Positions 14,689-58,620 of a stretch of 64,000 nucleotides of DNA are shown here, piece after piece (within the stretch, counting starts at the first letter, position 1; each line of letters begins with the position of its first letter). Source of the stretch: Bifidobacterium coryneforme (lineage in GTDB: Bacteria > Actinomycetota > Actinomycetes > Actinomycetales > Bifidobacteriaceae); assembly GCF_000737865.1 (NCBI RefSeq), contig NZ_CP007287.1, positions 35,982 to 99,981 on the forward strand, read 5' to 3'. The notes beneath the pieces were generated by a model that worked only from the letters and a program-made list of their open reading frames with translations, was not told the origin of the DNA and made no database searches. The position numbers were made by a program, and so were the translations under genes.

Positions 14689-16563
14689 ATGATCAATAAG
14701 GAACTTCTGCATTTGCCGGGTGCCAAGGTATCCGGCAGCGTCATTTTGGGCCTCCTGCATACGGTGGGGGCCGTGGCGGAGCTGGTGATCATGATCCTGT
14801 CCATCTACGCTCTGGGATTCCTCTGGGGCCTGCCGGTTCCGGGGCTGCTGAGCCCCCTTGTCGGACGGATTCCCGCCCTGGCGGTCAGCCTGGTGGTGCT
14901 GATTCTGGTCCGAGGACTCTGCCTTCTGGCGATCAGCCGGTGTTCCGCCTCTCTGGGCACCTCAATCAGCACGGCCCTTTCGGAGGATCTCTACCTTTCC
15001 ATGTTTGACGGCAGGCAGCGAAAGGTTGATGGGAACCGCCCCAACCAGAGCCTTGCCATGCTGTCCACGGAGGGCGTGAAGCGGGTGGCTTCCTACTTCA
15101 CGGATTTCCTGCCCATTCTCTTCCAGTCGGTCATGATGCTGCCTGTCGTGCTGCTTGTCCTCCTGCCGGTCAGCCCTGTGGGTGCCATCGTCGTGCTGGT
15201 GGGCATGGTGGTCATGCCCTTTACCCTCAGGATGGGAACCAAGCGCAACACCAAGGTCCAAACGGCGCATCTGCGCAAGTACGACAAGGTGGGGGTCCAC
15301 TTCGAGGAGTCCCTGCGTGGCCTGAATACGTTGAAGATCTTCCACGCTGACCAGGCCGAAGCCGACCGCCTGGCAGAGGACTCCGAAGGTTTCCGCCGCC
15401 AGACCATGGCGGTTCTGGCCGGGCAGCTGCGTAGTCTGATCAATGCCGACATGATGATCCACCTGACCGTCATCCTGGCTGCCGTTCTGACCGTGCTGGT
15501 CCAGTGGGGCTCGGGCCCACGTATCTGGCTTCTGCCCTCCATCGTGGTCGTCCTAACCGGTGTCCGTCTTTTTGCCCCCGCTCAACGTATGAGCTACCTG
15601 GCACATGCCGGTGTGGTGGCCACCCGTCAGGGTAAGGCCATTGCCGCCATACGCCGGGAAAGGCAGGAGGAGGAAGCACATGACCGGGCCGACCGAGAGG
15701 TTTCAGGCCCGGCCGGTTCCGAGTCCTCCCAGGGTGCATGTGCCGATACGGATGCGAGGCAGGGAGGCGCGACTGTTGAGCAGGTCGATCCAGACGATGG
15801 TGAGGGCGCTGGGATTGAGTGCGGGATCAAGGCCGACAATCTCAGGTTTACGTATCCCGACGGGTTCACTGCACTGCATGCCCTGAATTTCGAACTTCCG
15901 CAACAAGGACATATCGGTATTGTCGGTGCTTCCGGATCGGGCAAGTCGACTTTGGCTTCCATCCTGAGCGGGCAGCTCAAGGGGTATGAGGGAAGCCTGA
16001 GTGTATTCGGTAATCAGGTAAGCCGGATGTCCCCCTCGGACCTGATAACTTCCCAAACCGTGGTCAGGGGTACCGATCATCTTTTCAGTGGCACCCTGCG
16101 GTCCAACCTTGACCCGGCGGGTGTCGGGTACTCGGATGAGGTTCTGAAGCAGGCCTTGAGGGATGTGGACCTCCAAGACCTGTTGAGTCGGCCGGAGGGG
16201 CTGGAATCTCGACTTGAGCCAGGCGGCTCAAACCTGTCGGGAGGGCAAAGGCAGCGCCTTTCCATTGCACGAGGGCTCCTGCGTGGATCCAGGCTCTACA
16301 TCTTCGACGAGGCCACCAGCGCCGTCGACCGTGAGCACGATGCCAGCCTGGCCGCCCTGATGGATCGGCTTGGCAGGTCCAGCCTGGTCATCACCATCAC
16401 CCACCGCCTGGCCGGGGTACGGGATGCGGACAGGATCCTGCTTCTGGATCAGGGGCACTTGGTGGAAAGCGGCGATTTTGACCAGCTCATGGAAGCGGGC
16501 GGACTCTTTGCGGCCCAGTGGAACGAGCAGGAACGATACGAAGAGTTGGAGGCCGCACGATGA
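14689..16563 (+). CDS. ABC exporter half-transporter 1 (fused membrane and ATPase domains)
   Basis: About 624 residues: a six-helix transmembrane domain (about 15-320), a charged linker (about 325-390), then an ABC ATPase with Walker A GASGSGKST, signature LSGGQRQR, Walker B LYIFDEATSAVD and H-loop THR. Together with the next gene it should form a heterodimeric exporter. The overall form resembles CydD/CydC, but no cydAB genes are in the window, so that name is not safe. The start chosen is ATG at 14689 with GGA about 8 bases upstream; ATG at 14677 is an in-frame alternative. The stop overlaps the next start (ATGA). Confidence 0.85.
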   Translation: MINKELLHLPGAKVSGSVILGLLHTVGAVAELVIMILSIYALGFLWGLPVPGLLSPLVGRIPALAVSLVVLILVRGLCLLAISRCSASLGTSISTALSEDLYLSMFDGRQRKVDGNRPNQSLAMLSTEGVKRVASYFTDFLPILFQSVMMLPVVLLVLLPVSPVGAIVVLVGMVVMPFTLRMGTKRNTKVQTAHLRKYDKVGVHFEESLRGLNTLKIFHADQAEADRLAEDSEGFRRQTMAVLAGQLRSLINADMMIHLTVILAAVLTVLVQWGSGPRIWLLPSIVVVLTGVRLFAPAQRMSYLAHAGVVATRQGKAIAAIRRERQEEEAHDRADREVSGPAGSESSQGACADTDARQGGATVEQVDPDDGEGAGIECGIKADNLRFTYPDGFTALHALNFELPQQGHIGIVGASGSGKSTLASILSGQLKGYEGSLSVFGNQVSRMSPSDLITSQTVVRGTDHLFSGTLRSNLDPAGVGYSDEVLKQALRDVDLQDLLSRPEGLESRLEPGGSNLSGGQRQRLSIARGLLRGSRLYIFDEATSAVDREHDASLAALMDRLGRSSLVITITHRLAGVRDADRILLLDQGHLVESGDFDQLMEAGGLFAAQWNEQERYEELEAAR

Positions 16564-18350
16564 GCCGACAGAGGACTTCCAAGCAGAAGGGAACCGGATC
16601 GTTGAGCGGTACCAGTACAAGTGCCATGTCCAAGGAGGAGGTCGGCCCCCTGGCCGGCGGCGGCTCTCTGAGCATCATGCGTCGAATGGCCGGACTGATG
16701 AGGCCCCTGGCAGCCACCGAAGGTAAGGCCATAGGATGCGGGTCGCTCGGCCACCTGTGCTCTGTGTGGTGCGTCATGGCCGCGACGGCGGCCCTGATAG
16801 GTCTGAGTGGACTGGCCGGAAACGGCAGCTGGCTGAGCTGGACCTGGATTGCCTGGGCGGTGGTGTCCATTGTGGCCGGGGTGCTCAAGGGGGTTATGGC
16901 CTACGGCGAGCAGTACTATAACCATGAAATGGCGTTCAGTGTCCTGCGCGACATCCGTGTGACCGTTTTCGATAAGATGCGGACTCTGGCCCCGGCCAAG
17001 TTGTCGCGGCGTGGGAGGGGCAACATGGTCACCGTCCTGACCGATGACATCGAGGCTCTGGAGATTTTCTACGCCCATACCCTTTCACCCATCGCCATTG
17101 CCGTGATCACCGCCGTGGTCAACCTGGTCACGCTGACTGTCTTGTCCGGGTGGATGGGACTGATGGCCCTGGTTTCCTACCTGATCGTAGGCCTGGTCAT
17201 CCCCCTGCTCAGCGCCTCGCCCACCTTCCGCGTGGCCATGGCGGAGCGGACAGCCCAGGGGCGCCTGCATAGCCTTCTTCTGGAGACCCTGGACGGGCGG
17301 CGTGAGCTGGTGGCTCTGGGTGCCGCCGATCAGGTCAGGCAGAACCTGGATGAGGCCACCGGTGACATGCTGGAATCTCGGCGCCGCACCTCACGCAACA
17401 CCCTCTACAACGACCTGGCCACCCAGGTGGCCACCCTCGTCTGCATGGCCGCTTTCACCCTGGCCGTCTGCGCGCTCGCAGGCAGAGGAGCGATTGGTCT
17501 GGCCCCGGCCATGATTGGTCTGGTTGGTTTCCTCAGTTCCTTCGGTCCCCTGATTCCTGTGGCCAGACTGGGTTCGGGCCTGCAGCCCACCATCGCTGCC
17601 GCCCGAAGGGTCTTCGGCCTGCTGGACGAGGAGCCTGAGGTTGAAGAGGTGGCTGAAGGGTCCAGACTGCCTGCCTATTCAGGCACCCATGCCGGTGGGC
17701 TCTCCTTCGGTTATGCCACCGGGTCTGACCAGGATGGGAGCGGTTCCCTGGTTCTGCATGACCTGGAACTGGACATCAAGCCAGGGGACCTGGTCGGGGT
17801 CCAGGGTGAGAACGGGGCCGGGAAGACCACGCTCATCGACCTGCTCATGCGCTTCCGAGACAGGAATGCTGGCGACCTGACCGTCTCCGGCCTGTCCATC
17901 GAGACCATCAACACCGCTGATCTGCGTGCCCGACAGACCCTGGTGAGCCAGGATACCTATATATTCAGTGAAACCCTGGCCGACAACATCGCCATAGCCC
18001 GACCTGGTGCCAGCCGGGAGGAGATTGCCGAGGCCGCCAGCCAGGCCTGCCTTGATGATCTGATTGACCAGCTGCCCAAGGGACTGGACCAGGTTCTGAC
18101 CGGCAACGGATCCGAACTCTCCGAAGGGCAGAAGCAGCGGGTGGCCCTGGCCCGCGCCTTCCTGAGCCAGGCCTCCCTGCTCCTGCTGGACGAACCGACC
18201 AGCAACATGGATGCCCTCCTGGAGGGCAAGGTGCTCAAATCCCTGATTGATCAACAGGGTGACAGGGCCTACCTGATCGTCTCCCACCGGCCCTCGGTCC
18301 TGGCCCAGGTCAATCGGCTGTTGTCGCTAGATGGTGGAAGATTTGTATGA
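16560..18350 (+). CDS. ABC exporter half-transporter 2 (fused membrane and ATPase domains)
   Basis: About 596 residues with the same layout: a Ser/Thr/Gly-rich N-terminus of about 45 residues, six membrane helices, then an ABC ATPase with Walker A GENGAGKTT, Walker B LLLLDEPTSNMD and H-loop SHR. The signature is LSEGQ instead of LSGGQ, so one of the two composite ATP sites of the heterodimer may be less active, as in many heterodimeric exporters. Translation is coupled to the first half by the ATGA overlap at 16560-16563. This is the last gene before the AT-rich island. Confidence 0.85.
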   Translation: MSRQRTSKQKGTGSLSGTSTSAMSKEEVGPLAGGGSLSIMRRMAGLMRPLAATEGKAIGCGSLGHLCSVWCVMAATAALIGLSGLAGNGSWLSWTWIAWAVVSIVAGVLKGVMAYGEQYYNHEMAFSVLRDIRVTVFDKMRTLAPAKLSRRGRGNMVTVLTDDIEALEIFYAHTLSPIAIAVITAVVNLVTLTVLSGWMGLMALVSYLIVGLVIPLLSASPTFRVAMAERTAQGRLHSLLLETLDGRRELVALGAADQVRQNLDEATGDMLESRRRTSRNTLYNDLATQVATLVCMAAFTLAVCALAGRGAIGLAPAMIGLVGFLSSFGPLIPVARLGSGLQPTIAAARRVFGLLDEEPEVEEVAEGSRLPAYSGTHAGGLSFGYATGSDQDGSGSLVLHDLELDIKPGDLVGVQGENGAGKTTLIDLLMRFRDRNAGDLTVSGLSIETINTADLRARQTLVSQDTYIFSETLADNIAIARPGASREEIAEAASQACLDDLIDQLPKGLDQVLTGNGSELSEGQKQRVALARAFLSQASLLLLDEPTSNMDALLEGKVLKSLIDQQGDRAYLIVSHRPSVLAQVNRLLSLDGGRFV

Positions 18351-18907
18351 ATCTTTGTAGCTAATAGGCTGATTCTGATGCAATCTAGTGTTTCTGATTA
18401 CGTCGATTGTTGCGCATTCGCATCTTGTCTATCGGCTGGTCAATTATAAATTTGGAATCTATCATTTTCTCTTTTCAATTAGTCATGTTGTTGGATAATC
18501 GGATTGGGTTCACAGTTTCAGCCTATCTGTGTTATGGAAATAGAAGAATAGTGATTCGGGACTGTTTAAAATTAGCTTAGAAAATTAAAACAGCCGCAGT
18601 TCAAATTGTCATAGCAGAGTCGTCCAAGTGGAGTTTCAGCAGTCTATGTAGACCGGTTCAATCAGTCTTTCATTAGTCTCGTTATCGATCTTCTCGACTG
18701 CTTGTAGGTTCAGGAAGTACAAATGAACGGGCAAAGCGCAGTGATTCACTTGTAAAGTACTAGAACAAGGGTTGAGAACGCCGAATATCGTATATAGTGA
18801 TAGCAGATTTGTGTTGCTCAAGCTATAAACAGTAATAGGGAAGACCATGTAATGTAGTTGCAGCCCGTGTAGTCGGGATTTTCCAGGAGCTGCATATTAT
18901 ATGTAGT
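18351..18907. other. AT-rich intergenic stretch at the left edge of the island
   Basis: About 550 bases, visibly richer in A and T than the genes to the left. No confident gene. On the minus strand at 18636-18848 there is a 70-codon frame whose last 25 residues (including EKIDNETNERLIEPVYI) look like real protein, while its first half does not. It may be the tail of a lost gene, but I recognise no family. A weak inverted repeat (CTGTTT 18562-18567, AAACAG 18588-18593) lies further left. Confidence 0.4.
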
Positions 18908-19732
18908 TTACTCCCGTTTTTTGCACTTTTGATTGTAATCACTTTGGATTTTGCTACCAAAGCAATAGATTTCTGCCAGGGTTAACGACTGAATTTTAAA
19001 TAAGTCATTTTCCAACTCTTCGAGAGTTAAATTAGTATCGCTCATCATTCCGCCGTGAACTGCCTCGTTTCTGTTCTGAATCAAAGATTCAAGGAAATCG
19101 GTGAATAAAGATGACTGTTTTGCAGATTCTGACTCATGACGGTTTTCATTAGTTTTTAATTCATGACGGTTTTCATTAATTTGGTAGGGGAATGAAACTG
19201 TCATCCTAGACAAGTAAGCAGTCTCTTTCTTAATAAAATTATCTGAATCTTCAAAAGAATTTTTGAATACAATCTCAAAATCAGAATCATATAGTGTCCT
19301 ATTGATGTCTCTGACACTAAAATGCTCACAGCATTGTTTTACTGTGTCTGACGTTAAATTGCTAGAGTGGTTAAGAAAGTCATCTTTGATTTTGAGGTTT
19401 ACTTCTTGGCGGAGTAGTTCTTTTGTTATTTTAGTAATTTGCTGCCCTTTGACATCTTGGTTTCCAAGCAGTGTATATTTGACATATGCTCGTACAAGCG
19501 GCTCTGGAAGGGAAACATAGTCACTGGCCTCATTGATGTCACTTAGTATCCCTTTTAGTACGCCATAAAAACCACCCTCGAAATGCGAGCATAGCATCAA
19601 AAAGGCCGCTTTAAGATAAATCGGTTTTTTGCGTGAAGGAGTTCGCTTGTCTTTAACTAATCTGATCATTTCAGAGAGCTCTTTCCAGCGCTCTTCAAGA
19701 ACTATGATCTCGTCATGAAGATTACTGCTCAT
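18908..19732 (-). CDS. HEPN-domain protein (MAE_28990/MAE_18760-like putative RNase)
   Basis: 274 residues, mostly helical and polar. Near the C-terminus is the HEPN ribonuclease motif R-N-E-A-V-H (R221, H226; R-x4-H), and near the N-terminus a helix with SHFEGGF (49-55), as in the MAE_28990/MAE_18760 HEPN families known from prokaryotic conflict systems. HEPN proteins with this motif are typically metal-independent RNases used as toxins or in abortive infection. The start overlaps the end of the DUF262 gene by 11 bases, so the two are coupled. Residues about 186-200 hold a tandem N-E-N-R-H-E duplication coming from an 18-base direct repeat. Base composition is far more AT-rich than in flanking core genes. 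Confidence 0.8.
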   Translation of the reverse strand: MSSNLHDEIIVLEERWKELSEMIRLVKDKRTPSRKKPIYLKAAFLMLCSHFEGGFYGVLKGILSDINEASDYVSLPEPLVRAYVKYTLLGNQDVKGQQITKITKELLRQEVNLKIKDDFLNHSSNLTSDTVKQCCEHFSVRDINRTLYDSDFEIVFKNSFEDSDNFIKKETAYLSRMTVSFPYQINENRHELKTNENRHESESAKQSSLFTDFLESLIQNRNEAVHGGMMSDTNLTLEELENDLFKIQSLTLAEIYCFGSKIQSDYNQKCKKRE

Positions 19733-20831
19733 CGATTATGGCCTGCTCAGCTAATTGGGTTCGAGTTTTCAGGGCATTTGCATCTGTAATTGATCCACTA
19801 GTCGCTGAAATAAATTCTTCGGCGTCAAAGAGTTTGGCGAACTCTGCGCGTGCATTTTTCTTATAGTGCCTATTGGAGAGGCGCATGTCGTCATCGCTTA
19901 TGATCACCGCGTCGAATACAGCGGCATTAAAGCGCGATGCAAATTCTCGTTTTGAGCCAGAAGGATTCTTCTTCGCAAATGCATCTTCACCTAGGTTCTC
20001 TTTTATGCGATGCATTGCGGATGTAAACTGCACTCGAAAGCTGCTTATTTCCTTTTCGTCGGCATATTGATGCTTCTTCATGAAATTCGAAAGGAAATTC
20101 GACATCAGGGGGGTGTAATCACGATAACGCCCGTTCGTAAGTGCAAAAAAGCGCAGGATGAATTCGATATCGTCCATCTTGCTGATCCTTTTTTGCGAGA
20201 AATGCGTCAGTCCAATAAACGTAGGATCCTTGGCTAGCTCTTGTAGCAGTTTATTAAATGGGCCACCATATGTTGAATTCCTCAATTCTTGAGAAGTAAG
20301 TTGCACAGAACCCGTGTTCAATCTTTCGAATACATCGAATTTAACTGTTTCGTCAACAGTTGAATCGATACGTAAGCAGTTTATTGTCCGATCCCTAATT
20401 CGTCGTTTCAGGAAATCGGGTAGCTGGCTAAATTTCCGGCCATTTAGTTCTAAAATAATCCCTAAATCAGTAAGAGCAAATTTATCCTCAAAATAGTTCT
20501 TGATCGATGTCAATCTCTGCTGGCCATCGATAACTGAGTAATATCCATCTCCCGCGGTTTCATCAGAATCAATATCTACGTCATTCGACAAGTAAATAAA
20601 AGGAATGGGAATATTAAGTATCAGGCTCTCAATTAGTCTTGACGACTTCCCTTCGTCCCAACGGTATTTACGCTGATATTCAGGGTTTAGTTTAATTTTG
20701 TTGTCATCTATTTGCTTTATAAGCGTATTTATATCGTAGTTGACCTGTTGGGTTCGAATAGTATGCTCTTTCGTTAATTGCTTTAACTTATCGATGTTTG
20801 TGCTTTGAAACATAGATCTAGCATATAACAC
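19722..20831 (-). CDS. DUF262 (GmrSD N-terminal-like) protein
   Basis: 369 residues. The DUF262 hallmark D-G-Q-Q-R is at about residues 102-106, preceded by PEYQRKYRW and followed by a second family motif FERLNTG near 170. DUF262 is a ParB/Srx-like fold used in GmrSD, BrxU and SspE, where the DGQQR motif is linked to nucleotide binding or hydrolysis. The C-terminal DUF1524 HNH nuclease of GmrSD is missing: the last 150 residues are helical without an H-N-H pattern. The effector is thus probably the HEPN protein encoded next. Start at 20831 is supported by AGGAA about 10 bases upstream; ATG at 20813 is an alternative. AT-rich, likely acquired. Confidence 0.85.
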   Translation of the reverse strand: MLYARSMFQSTNIDKLKQLTKEHTIRTQQVNYDINTLIKQIDDNKIKLNPEYQRKYRWDEGKSSRLIESLILNIPIPFIYLSNDVDIDSDETAGDGYYSVIDGQQRLTSIKNYFEDKFALTDLGIILELNGRKFSQLPDFLKRRIRDRTINCLRIDSTVDETVKFDVFERLNTGSVQLTSQELRNSTYGGPFNKLLQELAKDPTFIGLTHFSQKRISKMDDIEFILRFFALTNGRYRDYTPLMSNFLSNFMKKHQYADEKEISSFRVQFTSAMHRIKENLGEDAFAKKNPSGSKREFASRFNAAVFDAVIISDDDMRLSNRHYKKNARAEFAKLFDAEEFISATSGSITDANALKTRTQLAEQAIIDEQ

Positions 20832-21083
20832 TGTTTCCTATATGATGTGTAACGATTATTTCTTTAATTTACAGACTACGTTGGCGCGAATTGTCACGTA
20901 AGTTTATATATAGATTCGAGAAAGTGTATATGCTGTTGGTGAAGGCGCTTAAACGAACTGGATGCGTTCTAGATGTGTCGGTTAACCTAACCACAGGTGT
21001 CAAGGAGAATCTGCCGTCGAGGCTTCTTTCATAGGCATTACTTGTTTATGTTTATCCGTCGCCTGTTTTAGTTAGCGAGAGTT

Positions 21084-21494
21084 TTATAACTGTCCTGACG
21101 CGATACTCACGATTAACTGTAAAGACCTGACAACCCGATTGATTGCCTCTTTGATTCCTGCGCCGGGGCGCTTCAGCTTGATTTGCACCCTCGGCAGGCC
21201 GTCGATGAGAATCGTCATATCGTAACTGTTCCTATAGACGGCATTGCCCTTGTGCGTCTTGTCCATCGTTGCCTGATAGATGTTTCGGTAGATGTCGGAG
21301 CTGAAGAAATCCAGATACACGGTCTTACCGTTATTCGGCGTTGGCACGTACTTATCGCGGATGATTTTCTCGGACTCGTAAACGCTATGGTTGTTGACAT
21401 GAATCATCACACGTCTGTACTCAGCATCTGAGAACGTTGCCTTGCTCTTCGCTTCAGCCGGGTTCTCGGCATCGTATTCGGAGGCGTGCGTCGT
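21084..21494 (-). pseudogene. type I restriction subunit R (HsdR) N-terminal remnant
   Basis: The frame from 21494 to the stop at 21084 encodes the start of an HsdR subunit: a segment with FSDAEYRRVMIHVNNHSVYE, then TVYLDFFSSD, and the nuclease-domain motifs Y-D-M-T-I-L-I-D-G-L-P and Q-I-K-L-K-R-P-G. In active HsdR these are the PD-(D/E)xK region. After EAIN the sequence departs from the family and stops at about residue 137. The remaining part of the roughly 1000-residue enzyme, and hsdM and hsdS, are absent nearby. No start codon precedes the coding-like part: the codon before it is TAG (21495-21497). I read it as a decayed fragment. Confidence 0.75.
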
Positions 21495-21689
21495 CTATTC
21501 GCTTTCTTCCTGTTTACCATTCGTGGTTCTAGCGAACGCTTTGGTTTCCTTGCGGTCGTGCTTCTGGCGTCGGCTTCGAGCACGTTGAGCATAGCCATCA
21601 TATCTTGCTTCTTGGCCGTATGCAGCCTCCTTTTTACTTCCTTGCAATAGATACTCACTATCTAACAAATAACTAATGAGTATCTCATC
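21495..21689 (-). pseudogene. unidentified gene tail preceding the HsdR remnant
   Basis: A 64-codon open frame ends at TAG 21495-21497 in the same frame as the HsdR remnant. It reads as plausible protein (for example EAAYGQEARYDGYAQRARSR and KQEESE at the end), but it lacks a clear start. I do not recognise the family. A single-base change can explain the junction: ATAGACGACG here, against ATGACGACG, would give a normal 4-base stop/start overlap between this gene and hsdR. That is inference. Confidence 0.35.
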
Positions 21690-21697
21690 TCAGTCTT

Positions 21698-22014
21698 GTT
21701 CTACTTCAGCTTTACCCGTCCGAACGGCATACCGGCGGGCGTTCTCACCTTGGCGCACATCGCGCGAACGTCTTGGCCGCGGGGCCACGGCCGTCCACGG
21801 AGATGGCGGAGCGCTTGAGTCTTGTGCCTGCGGTTGCCGCGGGCTCCGGCAGTAGACGATGTTGCGCGTCCAAGGGCTGGAAATAGCTTAAACGATAATA
21901 CGGGCTTTCTAGTCCATAAAAGCGGAAAAGGAGTGCCTACATTGCGCTCTCTAAATCGATAAATAAGTCCAAGCTCGTTCCTGAAGAAGATCAGTCCGAC
22001 GCTTCATATTTTTG
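21698..22014. other. decayed DNA between restriction remnant and tRNA-Ala
   Basis: About 320 bases without an intact gene. On the minus strand there are protein-like pieces in two frames: one at about 21761-21935 (containing ESPYYRLSYFQPLDAQHR), and one at 21701-21760 starting ATG and ending FGRVKLK. A frameshift between them could join them into one lost gene. I recognise neither piece. The stretch looks like a gene graveyard next to a tRNA. Confidence 0.35.
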
Positions 22015-22087
22015 TGGAGCTAGCCGGGTTCGAACCGGCGACCCTCTGCTTGCAAAGCAGATGCGCTACCAGCTGCGCCATAGCCCC
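22015..22087 (-). tRNA. tRNA-Ala (anticodon TGC)
   Basis: A complete cloverleaf reads from 22087 to 22015: acceptor GGGGCTA pairs with TAGCTCC, D-arm GCGCAGCTGGTAGCGC, anticodon loop TTTGCAA with anticodon TGC, T-arm GCCGGTTCGAACCCGGC, discriminator A at 22015. CCA is not encoded. It lies 34 bases downstream of tRNA-Ile on the same strand and borders the AT-rich island. Confidence 0.95.
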
Positions 22088-22121
22088 GTGATTGGAATGA
22101 ACTTCAAAAAGCAGAAGTGCG

Positions 22122-22195
22122 TGGGCCTGGGAGGACTTGAACCTCCGACCTCATCCTTATCAGGGATGCGCTCTAACCAGCTGAGCTACAGGCCC
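22122..22195 (-). tRNA. tRNA-Ile (anticodon GAT)
   Basis: A complete cloverleaf reads from 22195 to 22122: acceptor GGGCCTG pairs with CAGGCCC, D-arm AGCTCAGCTGGTTAGAGC, anticodon loop CTGATAA with anticodon GAT, T-arm GGAGGTTCAAGTCCTCC, discriminator A. CCA is not encoded. The pair Ile-Ala is in the same order as in many 16S-23S spacers, but here it stands alone. Confidence 0.95.
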
Positions 22196-22339
22196 ATTCC
22201 ATGTGACTCCGGAGAATCACACAAATGATTAGCATACCATGTGGGCAGAGTAAGTCAATTCGCGTCGCGTCGTGAGTTGCAAGATTACAAGCTACATCGC
22301 GGGGGTGGTGAAGAATGCAGGTATGACGGAGATTCGTAT

Positions 22340-43392: not shown

Positions 43393-45537
43393 TTAACTCT
43401 TGGTCGAGATGGTCACCGGTGGCTTGTTGTCGACCGGGGCACCCGGGGCCGGGTCGACACCGACCACCTTGGCGTTATCCGTTGTCGGCCCGTTCACGGA
43501 AACACTGGTAATGCCCAGTTCCGCGAGTTTGTGCTTGTAGCTGCCCAGGGTGTCGCCATTGTAGGAGGGGATGGCCAGACCACTGGAGGTGGTCAGGTTC
43601 ACCGCGTCGCTGAACTTGTCAATGACGGTTCCTGCGGACGGGTTCTGCTCTGTTACCTTGGCGTTGTCATCGTTGGGGCCGTTGACATTGATCTTCACCC
43701 CTTCGCCCAGTTCCTGCCTCGCCTGGGCCAGGGTCTTGCCGATGAGGTTGGGCATACTCATCCCGCTGGAGACGGACAGGGTAATCATGGTTCCCTGCTG
43801 GACTGATGATCCGGGGGCCGGATTGGAACTGATGACCGTGCCCTTGGCCGCCGTTTTGGAGGGTTCCTCCTGGATGGTGATGTTGAAACGTTGGCTCTGC
43901 AGGATATTGGTGGCCTCATCCTTGGACTTGCCGGTCAGGTCAGGCACCTTGGTCATGCCCGAGGAGATATAGAGCAGGACGTTGCTCCCCTTGGGGATGC
44001 TCTGCCCGCTGGCGGGGTCGGTTCTGGTCACATGGTCCTTGGGCACGTCCGTACTGTCTTCGACGGAGGCAGCGGGCGATACCTTGAAGCCCGCCTTTTC
44101 CAGGGTTCTCTTGGCGCTGTCCTGGTTCTGCCCCTTGACATCGGGGATGGCGGAATCCTTGGGTCCTGCCGAGAACCAGACGGTCACCGTGGAACCCTTG
44201 GGGACCTGGCTGCCACCCTTGGGGTTCTGCTTGGTGAAGGTGCCCTTGGGCTCGGAGGAATCGTTGTCCTCTCTCTCCTGGTACTTGAGCCCCGCGGCTG
44301 TGATCTTCTCCCTGGCCAGGACCTTGGACATCTGATTGGTGATGGTCGGCACAGTGGTGGTCTGCGTGCGGTCCTTGCTGAAGAACGCCCAGGCGCCCAG
44401 ACCGATGGCCAGGACCAGGATGACCCCCAGAACGGAGCCGATGATGATCTTCTTCTTGCGCTTGGCCTTTTGGGCGGCCTGCTTGGCCTTCTGTGCGGTG
44501 GCGATGGGGGCGGCGGCTCGGGCCTCATCCTCAATCGGGCTGAAGGCCTGGGTGGCTGCCGTGGCCTCGTCCTCTGAGGGCAGAGCCGAGGTGGCGGCCT
44601 CCTGTTCGGCGTCCTTCCTGGCCTTGAGGTTCGAAAGGTCGGTCAGGGGGTTGAAGGCGGCAGCCACGGGAGTGCCGCCGTTCATGTAGGCCATGATGTC
44701 GTTCTTGAAGGCCCCTGCCGTGGCGTAGCGGTTCTGGCGGTCCTTGGCCATGGCCTTGGCGCAGATGGAGTCCCACATCCGGGGAAGGCCGGGCACGATG
44801 CTGCTGGGCGGGGTCGCCACCTCGGACACATGCTGATAGGCGATGGCCACGGCCGTATCCCCGTTGAAGGGCGGCCGTCCGGTCAGCATCTCGTAGAGCA
44901 CGCAGCCGGCGGAGTAGAGGTCGGAGCGCATATCGACGCTCTCGCCCCTGGCCTGCTCGGGGCTCAGGTACTGGGCCGTGCCCACCACACCCTGGGATTG
45001 GGTCATGGTGGCTGCGGAGTCATCCAGGGCGCGGGCGATGCCGAAGTCCATGACCTTGACGATGCCCTGCTCCGAAATCATGATGTTGCCGGGCTTGATG
45101 TCGCGGTGGATGATTCCCATATGGTGGGAGTACTCCAGGGCGGCCAGGACCCCCAGCATCACCTGCTCGGCGTCACGTTGGCTCAGGGCGCCGTTTTCCT
45201 TGAGGATGGCCCTCAGGGTCTGGCCTTTCACATACTCCATGACCAGGTAGGGCACCCGCTCATGGTTGCCCTGGCTGTCGACCAGGATTTCCTCGCCTGA
45301 GTCGTATATGGAGACGATGTTGGGATTGTTGAGCTGGGCGACCGCATGGGCCTCGCGCCTGAACCGGGACAGGAATATCTCGTCGTTGGTCAGGTCGGAC
45401 CGCATGATCTTGATGGCAACGATCCTGCCGAGCCGGGTGTCCAGCGCTGTGTAGACCTCGGCCATACCGCCGCGCCCGATCAGTTGTTCGAGCTGGTAAC
45501 GTCCGTTCGCCAAGGAAGGCGGCAGTGTGATGCTCAT
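43393..45537 (-). CDS. pknB: serine/threonine protein kinase PknB with PASTA repeats
   Basis: 714 residues. Kinase domain about 14-280: G-rich loop GRGGMAEV, catalytic lysine in V-A-I-K-I, H-R-D-I-K-P-G-N and D-F-G. A basic juxtamembrane stretch ends in one membrane helix (about 365-388), followed by five PASTA-like repeats, each with a VP-x-x-x-G/P-x-G-S pattern, which bind peptidoglycan fragments or muropeptides. PknB senses wall state and phosphorylates division and wall-synthesis proteins. The start overlaps the pknA stop by 4 bases. It is the last gene of the fhaA-to-pknB operon, which ends at the hairpin at 43321-43358. Confidence 0.95.
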   Translation of the reverse strand: MSITLPPSLANGRYQLEQLIGRGGMAEVYTALDTRLGRIVAIKIMRSDLTNDEIFLSRFRREAHAVAQLNNPNIVSIYDSGEEILVDSQGNHERVPYLVMEYVKGQTLRAILKENGALSQRDAEQVMLGVLAALEYSHHMGIIHRDIKPGNIMISEQGIVKVMDFGIARALDDSAATMTQSQGVVGTAQYLSPEQARGESVDMRSDLYSAGCVLYEMLTGRPPFNGDTAVAIAYQHVSEVATPPSSIVPGLPRMWDSICAKAMAKDRQNRYATAGAFKNDIMAYMNGGTPVAAAFNPLTDLSNLKARKDAEQEAATSALPSEDEATAATQAFSPIEDEARAAAPIATAQKAKQAAQKAKRKKKIIIGSVLGVILVLAIGLGAWAFFSKDRTQTTTVPTITNQMSKVLAREKITAAGLKYQEREDNDSSEPKGTFTKQNPKGGSQVPKGSTVTVWFSAGPKDSAIPDVKGQNQDSAKRTLEKAGFKVSPAASVEDSTDVPKDHVTRTDPASGQSIPKGSNVLLYISSGMTKVPDLTGKSKDEATNILQSQRFNITIQEEPSKTAAKGTVISSNPAPGSSVQQGTMITLSVSSGMSMPNLIGKTLAQARQELGEGVKINVNGPNDDNAKVTEQNPSAGTVIDKFSDAVNLTTSSGLAIPSYNGDTLGSYKHKLAELGITSVSVNGPTTDNAKVVGVDPAPGAPVDNKPPVTISTKS

Positions 45538-56465: not shown

Positions 56466-57056
56466 TTACGGAATCCAGCGGAAAGCCTGTACAATCAGGG
56501 CCACTTGTTCGGCCCCTGGTAGCTGCTCGGCACCTCTCTTCGCCCACTTCCTTGCGACGGCATCAAGCTCGGAATTCATCTGTTTCATCTGATCGGGTGT
56601 CAGCATCAATACGGAATCACTGCTTACGCCTGCGCTGGCCCACTCCTTTGGAAGATCAGGCAATGCGTCTAGATAGCGTTCGTAGGTTTGCTCATATGCC
56701 AGTGCTGCCGAGCGCCTAAAGAGATCTGTTGCTTCTTCCTCGGTGGCATCATCCCTGTCTGAGGACTCTACAAGTGTTGCAGTCTGGCTTGCCTTCCACC
56801 AGCTTTGCCTCTTATCTTGCTCGGCGTTCCGTACCTTTTCTGCGAGTCCAACTTTTGCCAGCCGAGAGAGATGGTAGCTTATTGCGCCTGGCGCCTCCCC
56901 AAGGAAGCTGCTTATAGATCCGACGTTCTGCGTTCCCTTGACTCGCAAGACTCCAAGAATCCTCATCCTGATGGGGTTGGCTAGGACTTTAAGTGTTTCG
57001 CTGTTTGAAGCTCTTGGGATTTCAGACTTTTCATCTGCGGATGCTTCTTGAGTCAT
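56466..57056 (-). CDS. ArsR-type winged-helix transcriptional regulator
   Basis: About 196 residues. A winged helix-turn-helix (about 20-95) has L-A-N-P-I-R-M-R-I-L and the recognition region A-P-G-A-I-S-Y-H-L-S, as in ArsR/HTH_20 regulators. The helical C-terminal part (about 100-196) probably forms the dimer or ligand domain. The start is ATG at 57056 with GAGAGGAG eight bases upstream; the earlier open codons are ignored. It is divergent from an MFS exporter, with repeated GTACAAA sites between them, so autoregulation and control of the exporter are likely. GC content is lower than in neighbouring core genes. Confidence 0.88.
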   Translation of the reverse strand: MTQEASADEKSEIPRASNSETLKVLANPIRMRILGVLRVKGTQNVGSISSFLGEAPGAISYHLSRLAKVGLAEKVRNAEQDKRQSWWKASQTATLVESSDRDDATEEEATDLFRRSAALAYEQTYERYLDALPDLPKEWASAGVSSDSVLMLTPDQMKQMNSELDAVARKWAKRGAEQLPGAEQVALIVQAFRWIP

Positions 57057-57099
57057 AAGAAAAGCTCCTCTCTTTCCCTCGAGAACCATAGCAAGCAAG

Positions 57100-57131
57100 T
57101 TGTACAAATAAGTTATACAAATAGTTTGTAC
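57100..57131. promoter_or_regulatory. repeated operator between ArsR-type regulator and MFS exporter
   Basis: Two direct repeats, TTGTACAAATA (57100-57110) and TTATACAAATA (57113-57123), spaced 13 bases apart, are followed by an inverted copy of the core, TTTGTAC (57125-57131). The outer copies form an inverted repeat GTACAAA...TTTGTAC centred near 57116. This is a good candidate operator for the adjacent winged-helix regulator. The -35/-10 elements could not be placed with confidence. Confidence 0.6.
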
Positions 57132-57311
57132 GTGTTATTCTCATATCAATCCAATAAGGCGAGCAGCACACCATACGGAAAGAAGGAAGCCACGGAAAAG
57201 GTAATAAGACCCTTCCGCGAGAGGTATTGATGAGACTCCTTCCATACTGTTGATGGAACACCTGGCAGTGAGTGAGACCGGCTTCTCCCTAACCCCTGAA
57301 AGAGTGAACTG

Positions 57312-58559
57312 ATGGCCGAATCCACGCGCTCAGAGTCCTTCTGGAAAAATCCGGAGTACTTATCCTGGTTTACAGCGGACACCGCTTCCGCTGTCGGTCT
57401 CTCCATCAAAACCTTGTCTTTATCGTTGCTTGGTTATTCTGTATCCGGTTCGCTGGTGTCGGCAGGCTGGCTCGGAACACTTTCATTGGTGGCTCAGCAG
57501 GGCTTGAGCATATTCGGCGGTACATATATAGATCGCCACGATAGGAAAAGGCTGATTGCTTTCAACGCATTGGCCGGATTCGTCTTATGGGGAACCATTG
57601 CGATTCTGGGTTTGGTCAACCATCTCTCTTTTACGGTTCTGATTGTGCTATCAGTGACTGCATCGGCGATCAACGGGTTCTTGGGGGGTGCGACAGATGC
57701 CATGCTTCGGTCAATTATCGGTGTCCGCAATTACCCGAAGGCCAGAAGCATCAACGAAGGAAGAGACTCAACCGTCAATATGACCGGCAGCCCACTCAGT
57801 GGATTTCTCTATTCGCTGCATCCGATGCTCCCGTTTTTCACAGCATCGTTCATGTACGCCATCGCCGGAATTGCTGCTTTTGGATTAAAAACCGGCAATC
57901 AGCAGATCGAGAAGACTCAATCAGATAGGAAGTCCTACGGTCAAGACTTCTTGTCGGGCTGGAAGTGGTCGCTGAAGCGTAAGACCGTGGTGCTCTCCGT
58001 CAGCGCTGCCAGTCTTGCCAGCTTCGGCATCAATGGAATTCAATATGCCATCCAGCTCGATCTGACTGGAAAGAGAGTAAATTCCACCTACATCGGTCTC
58101 GTTGGCGCCGGAATTTGCCTTGGTATGATTGCCGGATCGCTCATTGCAAACAAAATCAGCAATACCGCACCTGTCGGCAAGAGTGTGTGTCTGGCTTTTG
58201 CCTGCATCAGTCTCTTTATGATTCCCATGGTCGTGTCGGGGAATCAACTTGTGATTATCACCTGCAACTCTCTGATTGGTATTCCCTTCCCAATCATTAA
58301 CTCTTTGCTTGTTGGCTTCATTTTTGCGAAAGCCCCAAACCAGATGCAAGGCAGAATTGGTGTTACTCTTACGGCTCCATCGCAAATGGCAGCGGCGTTC
58401 TGTAGTGCTATAGCGGGAACCCTGCTTACGGCCATCAGGTTCCGCGCAACAGTTATTGTATTTTCCTCCACATTCTTTTTGGGCACCTTGATGATTTTGA
58501 CATCACGCTCAATTCGGCAAATACCAAGTTCCGCGCAATGGGAAGAGGCTGTTTTGTAA
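57312..58559 (+). CDS. MFS-family transporter (drug-efflux-like)
   Basis: 415 residues with about twelve membrane helices in two halves and the loop motif G-G-T-Y-I-D-R-H-D-R-K-R (MFS motif A, about 68-79). A central loop with K-T-Q-S-D-R-K follows helix 6. The partner regulator on the other strand suggests an inducible exporter, perhaps for a drug or metabolite. Codons end more often in A/T than in flanking genes, which suggests horizontal gain together with the regulator. A weak GAAAGAG site precedes ATG 57312. Confidence 0.88.
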   Translation: MAESTRSESFWKNPEYLSWFTADTASAVGLSIKTLSLSLLGYSVSGSLVSAGWLGTLSLVAQQGLSIFGGTYIDRHDRKRLIAFNALAGFVLWGTIAILGLVNHLSFTVLIVLSVTASAINGFLGGATDAMLRSIIGVRNYPKARSINEGRDSTVNMTGSPLSGFLYSLHPMLPFFTASFMYAIAGIAAFGLKTGNQQIEKTQSDRKSYGQDFLSGWKWSLKRKTVVLSVSAASLASFGINGIQYAIQLDLTGKRVNSTYIGLVGAGICLGMIAGSLIANKISNTAPVGKSVCLAFACISLFMIPMVVSGNQLVIITCNSLIGIPFPIINSLLVGFIFAKAPNQMQGRIGVTLTAPSQMAAAFCSAIAGTLLTAIRFRATVIVFSSTFFLGTLMILTSRSIRQIPSSAQWEEAVL

Positions 58560-58568
58560 GCCGTCTTT

Positions 58569-58597
58569 GATGACAAGCGGACCCCTGGCTTGTCATC
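58569..58597 (+). terminator. terminator hairpin after the MFS gene
   Basis: A perfect 10-bp stem, GATGACAAGC (58569-58578) and GCTTGTCATC (58588-58597), with a 9-base loop begins 9 bases after the MFS stop codon. It is a plausible transcript end, though no T-tract follows. Confidence 0.65.
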
Positions 58598-58620
58598 CGT
58601 GGAAGTCGATTTTGCGATAG

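What the first reader, a model, noticed from the sequence alone, without database searches (positions are those of the whole stretch)
18908..20831. Candidate two-gene defence module: DUF262 protein coupled to a HEPN RNase
An AT-rich, minus-strand pair with 11-base overlap encodes a DUF262 protein with the DGQQR motif but no DUF1524/HNH nuclease, and a HEPN protein with an intact R-x4-H (R221, H226). In GmrSD-type systems the DUF262 part is the nucleotide-using regulator and the HNH part cuts DNA. Here the cutting part seems to be replaced by a predicted RNase, suggesting regulator-controlled RNA cleavage, i.e. an abortive-infection or toxin-like design. It lies beside restriction-gene debris and a tRNA pair, a common place for defence genes. 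I do not know of an experimental study of this exact pairing.
Basis: partly seen in the sequence, partly recalled or inferred. Interest (0 to 1): 0.75.

Follow-up and report, generated by a model that had tools for sequence, protein, structure and literature searches.

The report
Predicted phage-defence gene pair, known type
A Bifidobacterium chromosome carries an apparently acquired two-gene module, a predicted nucleotide-binding sensor plus a predicted RNA-cutting enzyme, of a type already shown to protect E. coli from a virus, at a spot where several related bacteria keep other anti-virus genes.

Summary
In detail: a minus-strand operon of a DUF262 protein (19722-20831, DGQQR, no DUF1524/HNH) overlapping by 11 bases a HEPN protein (18908-19732, R221-x4-H226). 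The pairing is real: in loci fetched by DUF262 similarity alone, a HEPN gene lies directly 3' in 46 of 80 genome and 67 of 80 viral contigs. R221, H226 and also E52 are near-invariant. The claim that this pairing is unstudied is wrong: PD-T4-2, anti-T4 defence of E. coli ECOR65, has DUF262 and a PF18735 HEPN, and the operon link was tabulated in 2013. The window pair shares that architecture but is divergent: its HEPN matches no PADLOC model, and its DUF262 scores best with Menshen's NsnA although no Menshen partner is present. The pair lies in a 2.8-kb AT-rich segment standing in place of a type I restriction operon that the sister genome has, at a variable tRNA-side site where 11 of 14 examined congeners have defence-type genes. 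Best reading: a PD-T4-2-like module in which a ParB/Srx-fold sensor controls a HEPN RNase; the trigger, RNA cutting and abortive outcome are inferred.

The parts
19722..20831 (-). Gene A: DUF262 / GmrSD_N protein, 369 aa, predicted ParB/Srx-type nucleotide-binding sensor
   Evidence: PF03235 1.7e-28; PADLOC NsnA 276 bits, PD-T4-2_A 150 bits; model pLDDT 88.0, closest solved folds BrxU, ParB, SspE
20514..20528 (-). Codons of D102-G-Q-Q-R106 (nucleotide-pocket motif)
   Evidence: read; D102, G103, Q105, R106 in 55 of 55 rows of A7
18908..19732 (-). Gene B: HEPN protein, 274 aa, predicted RNase effector
19055..19072 (-). Codons of R221-N-E-A-V-H226, HEPN catalytic motif
   Evidence: R221 in 99 of 101 (K in 2) and H226 in 101 of 101 rows of A5; four HEPN hits were left out of A5, three of them without a visible motif
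19577..19579 (-). Codon of E52, third near-invariant residue of the HEPN family
   Evidence: E in 100 of 101 rows of A5, D in one
19722..19732 (-). 11-base overlap of gene A stop and gene B start (likely translational coupling)
   Evidence: in 124 homologous pairs the median gap is 1 base, 56 overlap (the search rule admitted gaps of -80 to +120)
18324..21136 (.). Segment (2.8 kb, 39-41% GC) with no match in the sister genome at this site; 18347-21136 has none in any of the 14 congeners read; carries genes A and B
   Evidence: blastn at E <= 1e-3 against L192-L205; GC
21126..21476 (-). Remnant of a type I restriction gene (HsdR residues 53-173); intact copies exist in other genomes at this site
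   Evidence: tblastn 71% over 121 residues; HSDR_N hit of the 108-aa ORF
16518..18350 (+). ABC transporter gene, left border of the variable site
   Evidence: PF00005/PF00664; conserved flank
22014..22195 (-). tRNA-Ala(tgc) and tRNA-Ile(gat), right border of the variable site
   Evidence: ARAGORN, Rfam, conserved flank

Best explanation
A two-gene anti-phage module of the PD-T4-2 type. Gene A makes a ParB/sulfiredoxin-fold (DUF262) protein that binds a nucleotide through its DGQQR pocket and recognises a sign of infection, perhaps modified phage DNA, as its relatives GmrSD, BrxU and SspE do. In the resting cell A keeps HEPN protein B inactive or does not activate it. On infection a nucleotide-dependent change in A releases or activates B, whose R221/H226 site (with E52) cuts RNA and blocks phage production, probably at the cost of the cell. 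Shown here: the genes, their coupling in many phyla, the conserved motifs, the predicted folds, and the place at a site of exchanged defence genes. Known from print: PD-T4-2, with the same two domains, blocks T4. Inferred: nucleotide use, the trigger, RNA cutting, abortive outcome.
For: Domains and motifs. Adjacency: HEPN directly 3' of DUF262 in 46 of 80 genome and 67 of 80 viral loci fetched by DUF262 alone. Among 1,776 other ORFs in 174 loci an early profile gave 6 hits and the final one 8, of which 7 also lie beside the DUF262 gene and 1 (L147, E about 2e-4) does not. Pfam, independently: 95 of 101 HEPN rows match PF18735. In the window's phylum 5 of 9 HEPN places over cut-off adjoin a DUF262 gene, though 92 of 346 genomes have any. 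Carriers include plasmids, phages and a prophage. The segment stands where the sister genome has type I R-M, at a variable site with restriction and other defence genes. PD-T4-2 deletion and cloning results. BrxU/ParB/SspE-like fold of A, HEPN-like fold of B.
Confidence: 0.62

Rival explanations
1. Toxin-antitoxin pair: B is a constitutively toxic HEPN RNase, A its nucleotide-regulated antitoxin; the main role is self-maintenance or stress response, with phage defence a by-product.
For: Regulator-first overlapping gene order; presence on a 3.9-kb plasmid with two other annotated genes; HEPN toxins of MNT-HEPN pairs are the nearest solved folds of B; a HEPN-ParA ATPase dyad was postulated to be a toxin-antitoxin pair (passages).
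Against: DUF262 proteins are coupled to nucleases in GmrSD, BrxU, SspE and Menshen (passages). Congeners have restriction and other defence genes at the site. PD-T4-2 came out of a phage selection. The two ideas are not exclusive.
Confidence: 0.2
2. Type IV restriction-like system in which A, a ParB-family protein, is itself the DNA-cutting part and B only assists.
For: The 2013 paper speaks of ParB-fold endoDNases and, for the related MAE_28990 family, of an operon with a ParB nuclease (passages); ParB/Srx proteins are said to nick DNA (passage).
Against: No HNH/DUF1524 domain in A. In BrxU, GmrSD and SspE the cutting is ascribed to DUF1524. B keeps the HEPN motif in 99-101 of 101 relatives, which a mere accessory would not need.
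Confidence: 0.1
3. A Menshen (NsnABC) variant or remnant, since A scores best with NsnA.
For: NsnA 276 bits against PD-T4-2_A 150 bits.
Against: No NsnB/NsnC neighbour. Five of five HEPN-linked DUF262 proteins scanned (window, L003, L007, L008, L206) score NsnA first. On the tree the window lies in a set of 9 HEPN-linked rows (support 100), apart from the 6 DUF3696-linked rows.
Confidence: 0.03

Closest known systems
PD-T4-2 (E. coli ECOR65; Vassallo et al. 2022, PMC9519451)
   Same: DUF262 and HEPN of PF18735; the E. coli prophage pair L206, which matches both PADLOC PD-T4-2 models, has the same gene order and an overlapping start.
   Different: Window DUF262 lies in another part of the tree than L007, the 56% neighbour of L206 (L206 itself is not on the tree). 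HEPN is longer (274 against 211 aa in L206) and misses PD-T4-2_B. The ECOR65 sequence itself was not fetched.
RiboL-PSP-HEPN / ParB operons (Anantharaman et al. 2013, PMC3710099)
   Same: Same HEPN family, table entry 'operon with ParB'.
   Different: Computational prediction of a general class, not this locus.
Menshen (NsnABC)
   Same: Homologous DUF262 component; best PADLOC model for gene A.
   Different: Partners are an AAA/DUF3696 protein and NsnC, not HEPN.
GmrSD / BrxU / SspE
   Same: DUF262 domain with DGQQR; BrxU and SspE are among the closest solved folds.
   Different: They carry a DUF1524 nuclease; gene A has none.

Membership tests
PD-T4-2 | DUF262 gene followed by an adjacent HEPN gene, same strand | tested here: met
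   order as in L206
PD-T4-2 | HEPN component of PF18735 (listed for PD-T4-2 in PMC10952713) | tested here: met
   2.4e-17, over cut-off; table passage
PD-T4-2 | Match to PADLOC model PD-T4-2_A | tested here: met
   150 bits, 1.7e-44, but NsnA scores higher
PD-T4-2 | Match to PADLOC model PD-T4-2_B | tested here: not met
   no hit at E <= 0.1; of 14 HEPN proteins scanned only L007 and L206 hit it
PD-T4-2 | Protection against T-even phages | not testable with these tools
   needs an experiment
GmrSD type IV restriction | DUF1524/HNH nuclease part | tested here: not met
   only PF03235 in gene A, only HEPN families in gene B
Menshen | NsnB (AAA/DUF3696) and NsnC beside NsnA | tested here: not met
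   no other ORF of comparable size between the ABC gene and the tRNAs; gene B matches no PADLOC model; contrast L010
HEPN superfamily RNase | R-x4-6-H motif (spacing recalled) in an all-helical protein | tested here: met
HEPN superfamily RNase | Match to a solved HEPN fold | tested here: inconclusive
HEPN superfamily RNase | RNA cleavage | not testable with these tools
   needs an experiment

The most novel reading that the evidence does not exclude
The DUF262 (ParB/Srx) domain is a general infection sensor that evolution couples to different killers: HNH DNases, DUF3696/OLD-type ATPase partners and, most often in this branch, HEPN RNases. The window's clade is an unrecognised RNA-cutting subtype, distinct from PD-T4-2 as the detection model used here defines it, with its own trigger and a long HEPN whose third near-invariant residue (E52) is part of the active or regulatory site.
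Probability: 0.35. Interest if true: 0.55.

Novelty: new member of a known kind. Interest (0 to 1): 0.36.

Why it matters
It corrects a claim of novelty and shows that a tested but little-studied defence architecture (PD-T4-2) belongs to a large DUF262-HEPN family found in many bacterial phyla, plasmids and phages. The PADLOC 2023 HEPN model for PD-T4-2 matched 2 of the 14 HEPN proteins scanned, so such pairs are probably under-called. It also marks a site of exchanged defence genes in a Bifidobacterium group that can be mined for further systems.

Tried and rejected
HEPN protein alone against genome contigs: 37 pattern matches, none a relative; against plasmids: none. The protein search gave 5 hits, one of them 99% identical (it needs shared exact words, so distant kin are missed). 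PDB by sequence: no match for A at E <= 1, two at E 1.1-1.4 for B.

RNA antitoxin as in AbiF systems (recalled): Rfam at E <= 1 over 17900-22300 gave the two tRNAs and two matches below their cut-offs. Promoter and terminator scans: 7 and 2 found against 7.6 and 2.3 in shuffles.

Menshen: disfavoured (no NsnB/NsnC; tree). A single origin of HEPN linkage: not supported; the label needs 9 changes, at least 5 forced by starred branches, against 27.4 in shuffles (quick tree; 13 of 174 loci left out for a DUF262 frame outside 300-480 aa, then de-duplicated at 85%).

PADLOC as a measure of the site is weak by count: 11 of 20 ORFs scanned there had a hit at 1e-5, against 5 of 10 long ORFs elsewhere in the window, one of the latter strong (PD-T4-6, 589 bits, to my knowledge a protein-kinase family; the others look like ATPase, SMC-like and DruC models). 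What differs is the kind: full-length restriction subunits, PD-Lambda-5 A with B, ThsB. The AbiD hit in L198 (37.9 bits) is weak. No matched-interval control was run.

HEPN profile: iterated on a small set, so its E-values are lenient. For the Pfam check and residue counts (A5) I used window, P0002-P0005 and 96 of 100 de-duplicated hits (of 124); dropped were L009 (broken), L080 and L098 (cut by the locus end) and L102 (short, no motif). Of the 124 hits five show no R-x4-H: L009, L098, L102, L131, L136, so the A5 counts lean slightly high.

Ten plasmid/phage loci (L003-L012) were hand-picked for variety from 297 plasmid and 46 phage records: six have an intact HEPN directly next, L011 one after a 182-base gap, L009 a broken one, L010 and L012 a DUF3696-like gene.

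Full report
What is there. Gene A (19722-20831, minus, 369 aa) is PF03235 over residues 36-188, with D102-G-Q-Q-R106 and no DUF1524/HNH hit. Gene B (18908-19732, minus, 274 aa) is PF18735, the RiboL-PSP-HEPN family, with a weaker PF18737 match. Their 11-base overlap is typical: across 124 homologous pairs the median distance is 1 base, 56 overlap and 123 are within 20 bases; my rule admitted gaps of -80 to +120.

Is the pair more than chance? In 346 genomes drawn from the window's phylum, PF18735 is over its cut-off at 9 places in 8 genomes (12 genomes at E <= 0.001), and 92 genomes have a PF03235 match. By coordinates 5 of the 9 places (G000, G072 C9, G123, G265, G272) sit directly beside a DUF262 gene; 4 do not (G156, G161, G193, and G072 C47, which is at a contig end). 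A HEPN gene lies directly 3' in 46 of 80 and 67 of 80, with R-x4-H in 44 of 46 and 65 of 67. As a control the profile was run on the 1,776 other ORFs of at least 130 aa in these and 14 further loci: the early profile hits 6, the final one 8; 7 of these are themselves beside the DUF262 gene but missed by my distance or length rule (L009, L011, L047, L071, L095, L110, L141), and 1 is elsewhere (L147, E about 2e-4). Counting them, adjacency is 48 of 80 and 70 of 80. The viral set holds near-copies; after removing DUF262 proteins 85% alike it is 47 of 67 genome rows (frames of 300-480 aa only) and 45 of 53 viral rows. Pfam agrees independently: 95 of 101 HEPN rows match PF18735 at 1e-3.

Is it known? 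Yes in kind. A 2023 review lists DUF262 and PF18735 HEPN for PD-T4-2 and notes that it has no DUF1524 (PMC10952713, passages). Vassallo et al. 2022 (PMC9519451; section 7 read; passages) report that deleting PD-T4-2 from ECOR65 greatly raises T4 plaquing and that it also works in K-12; the domain drawing and abortive-infection plots are in figures I could not see. Anantharaman et al. 2013 (PMC3710099, passages) give 'operon with ParB' for RiboL-PSP-HEPN. Papers holding both DUF262 and HEPN: 2; PD-T4-2: 4 (PMC11291487 passage seen; PMC13268207 listing only); GmrSD and HEPN: 4 (PMC12839542 passages seen; PMC11090510 and PMC5512222 listing only). By what I saw none is a mechanism study of the pair. 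The library holds open-licence papers only.

Same kind, different branch. PADLOC gives gene A NsnA (276 bits) above PD-T4-2_A (150 bits) and gene B nothing. NsnA is the Menshen DUF262: L010, with the DUF262-DUF3696 arrangement, matches NsnA, NsnB and NsnC in order; that the Nsn names stand for Menshen is my reading of the DUF262 plus OLD-type pairing described for Menshen. The best model is misleading here, because five of five HEPN-linked DUF262 proteins scanned (window, L003, L007, L008 and the E. coli pair L206, which matches both PD-T4-2 models) score NsnA first. On a tree of 135 DUF262 proteins the window falls in a set of 9 rows (support 100), all HEPN-linked, with Klebsiella plasmid L003 and two Hymenobacter genomes; the 6 DUF3696-linked proteins form a separate group (support 83). 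L206 was not on the tree; its nearest relative in the set, L007 (56%), lies in a different, 51-row clade. L206 and L007 share PF18735 with gene B. The broad HEPN profile aligns to theirs at 97.7%, the narrow profile of gene B's close relatives only weakly (14%).

Setting. The genome is a single 1,755,151-base contig. The closest homologue of gene A that carries an organism name is from Bifidobacterium sp. B4001 (61%). From memory, this length and that of G014 (1,734,546) fit the honeybee species B. coryneforme and B. indicum; that is recall, not a test. Gene B is found in 1 of 27 congeneric genomes and not in the same-species G014; gene A has distant matches (28-35% identity, best 3.6e-27) in 3 of the 26 others, none in G014. 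Against G014, 17970-18323 is 98.6% identical, 21137-21472 is 84% identical inside its HsdR gene, and 18324-21136 has no match. G014 has there HsdR (823 bits) and HsdM (451 bits) and a third gene of 407 aa, by position HsdS, not scanned. So the pair stands in place of most of a restriction operon, of which an HsdR fragment remains.

The site. Between the ABC gene and the tRNA pair, 14 congeners have intervals of 3.2-14.2 kb with differing content. Defence-type genes mark 11 of 14: type I (G014, G010, G020), type IIG-like (G004, G022, G018, G019), type III (G007), PD-Lambda-5 A+B (G012), ThsB with a SLOG-family neighbour (G009), and a weak AbiD (G008); in G011, G025 and G003 I found none. 20 of 56 ORFs (of 100 aa or more) were scanned with PADLOC, in 10 of the 14 intervals; G010, G020, G022 and G025 were assigned by 92-98% identity of their large proteins to scanned ones. 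A control of ten long ORFs elsewhere in the window gave a hit in 5, so the rate of hits (11 of 20) says nothing; the weight lies in the full-length restriction subunits and two-part systems. This is circumstantial evidence for a defence role.

Mechanism. Shown: paired, co-oriented, conserved genes with intact motifs, also on mobile elements, and here at a site of exchanged defence genes. From relatives: DUF262 proteins bind or hydrolyse nucleotides and in SspE switch the nuclease part. Inferred: A senses infection and switches on B, B cuts RNA, infection aborts. A toxin-antitoxin reading is the main rival and differs mostly in emphasis.

Verdict. Observation confirmed, novelty claim refuted: a divergent member of the DUF262-HEPN kind whose tested representative is PD-T4-2. 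The fresh points are the breadth of the family beyond the detection model used, the near-invariant E52, and the tRNA-side site.

Noticed in passing
window 19124-19177: A 27-base tandem repeat (copies 85% identical) inside the HEPN gene adds a repeated N-E-N-R-H-E stretch absent from relatives P0002-P0005; it falls in the lowest-confidence part of the model.
   Followed up: partly
window 18350-22013 and L192-L205: Variable site between an ABC transporter gene and tRNA-Ala/Ile with different defence-type genes in congeners. Two literature searches (5 papers listed, 10 of 35 listed) showed no paper on such a site in Bifidobacterium by title or abstract.
   Followed up: partly
window 18324-18907: 584 bases at 39% GC downstream of the HEPN gene have no recognised gene or RNA; the 70-aa ORF 18636-18848 has no family match.
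   Followed up: partly
L009 4126-5157: Nostoc plasmid copy of the pair: the HEPN reading frame is interrupted by a stop while the DUF262 frame is open.
   Followed up: no
L110 4393-6387: Pseudomonas copy whose DUF262 frame is broken into two ORFs beside an open HEPN frame.
   Followed up: no
L007: A 3.9-kb E. coli plasmid whose four annotated genes are the DUF262-HEPN pair, a VbhA-family antitoxin and a replication protein.
   Followed up: no
window 57000-58600: A second AT-richer stretch (about 49-53% GC) carries a 415-aa ORF (57312-58559) that by eye reads like a membrane transporter.
   Followed up: no
L035, L112, L113, L116, L119, L123, L125, L127, L128: Nine DUF262 proteins of about 440-475 aa, none with a HEPN gene directly downstream, form one group on the tree (support 99); possibly a self-contained type.
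   Followed up: no
window 43393-45537: A 714-aa protein matches PADLOC PD-T4-6 strongly (589 bits); likely a housekeeping protein kinase (recalled), which shows how lax single PADLOC hits can be.
   Followed up: no
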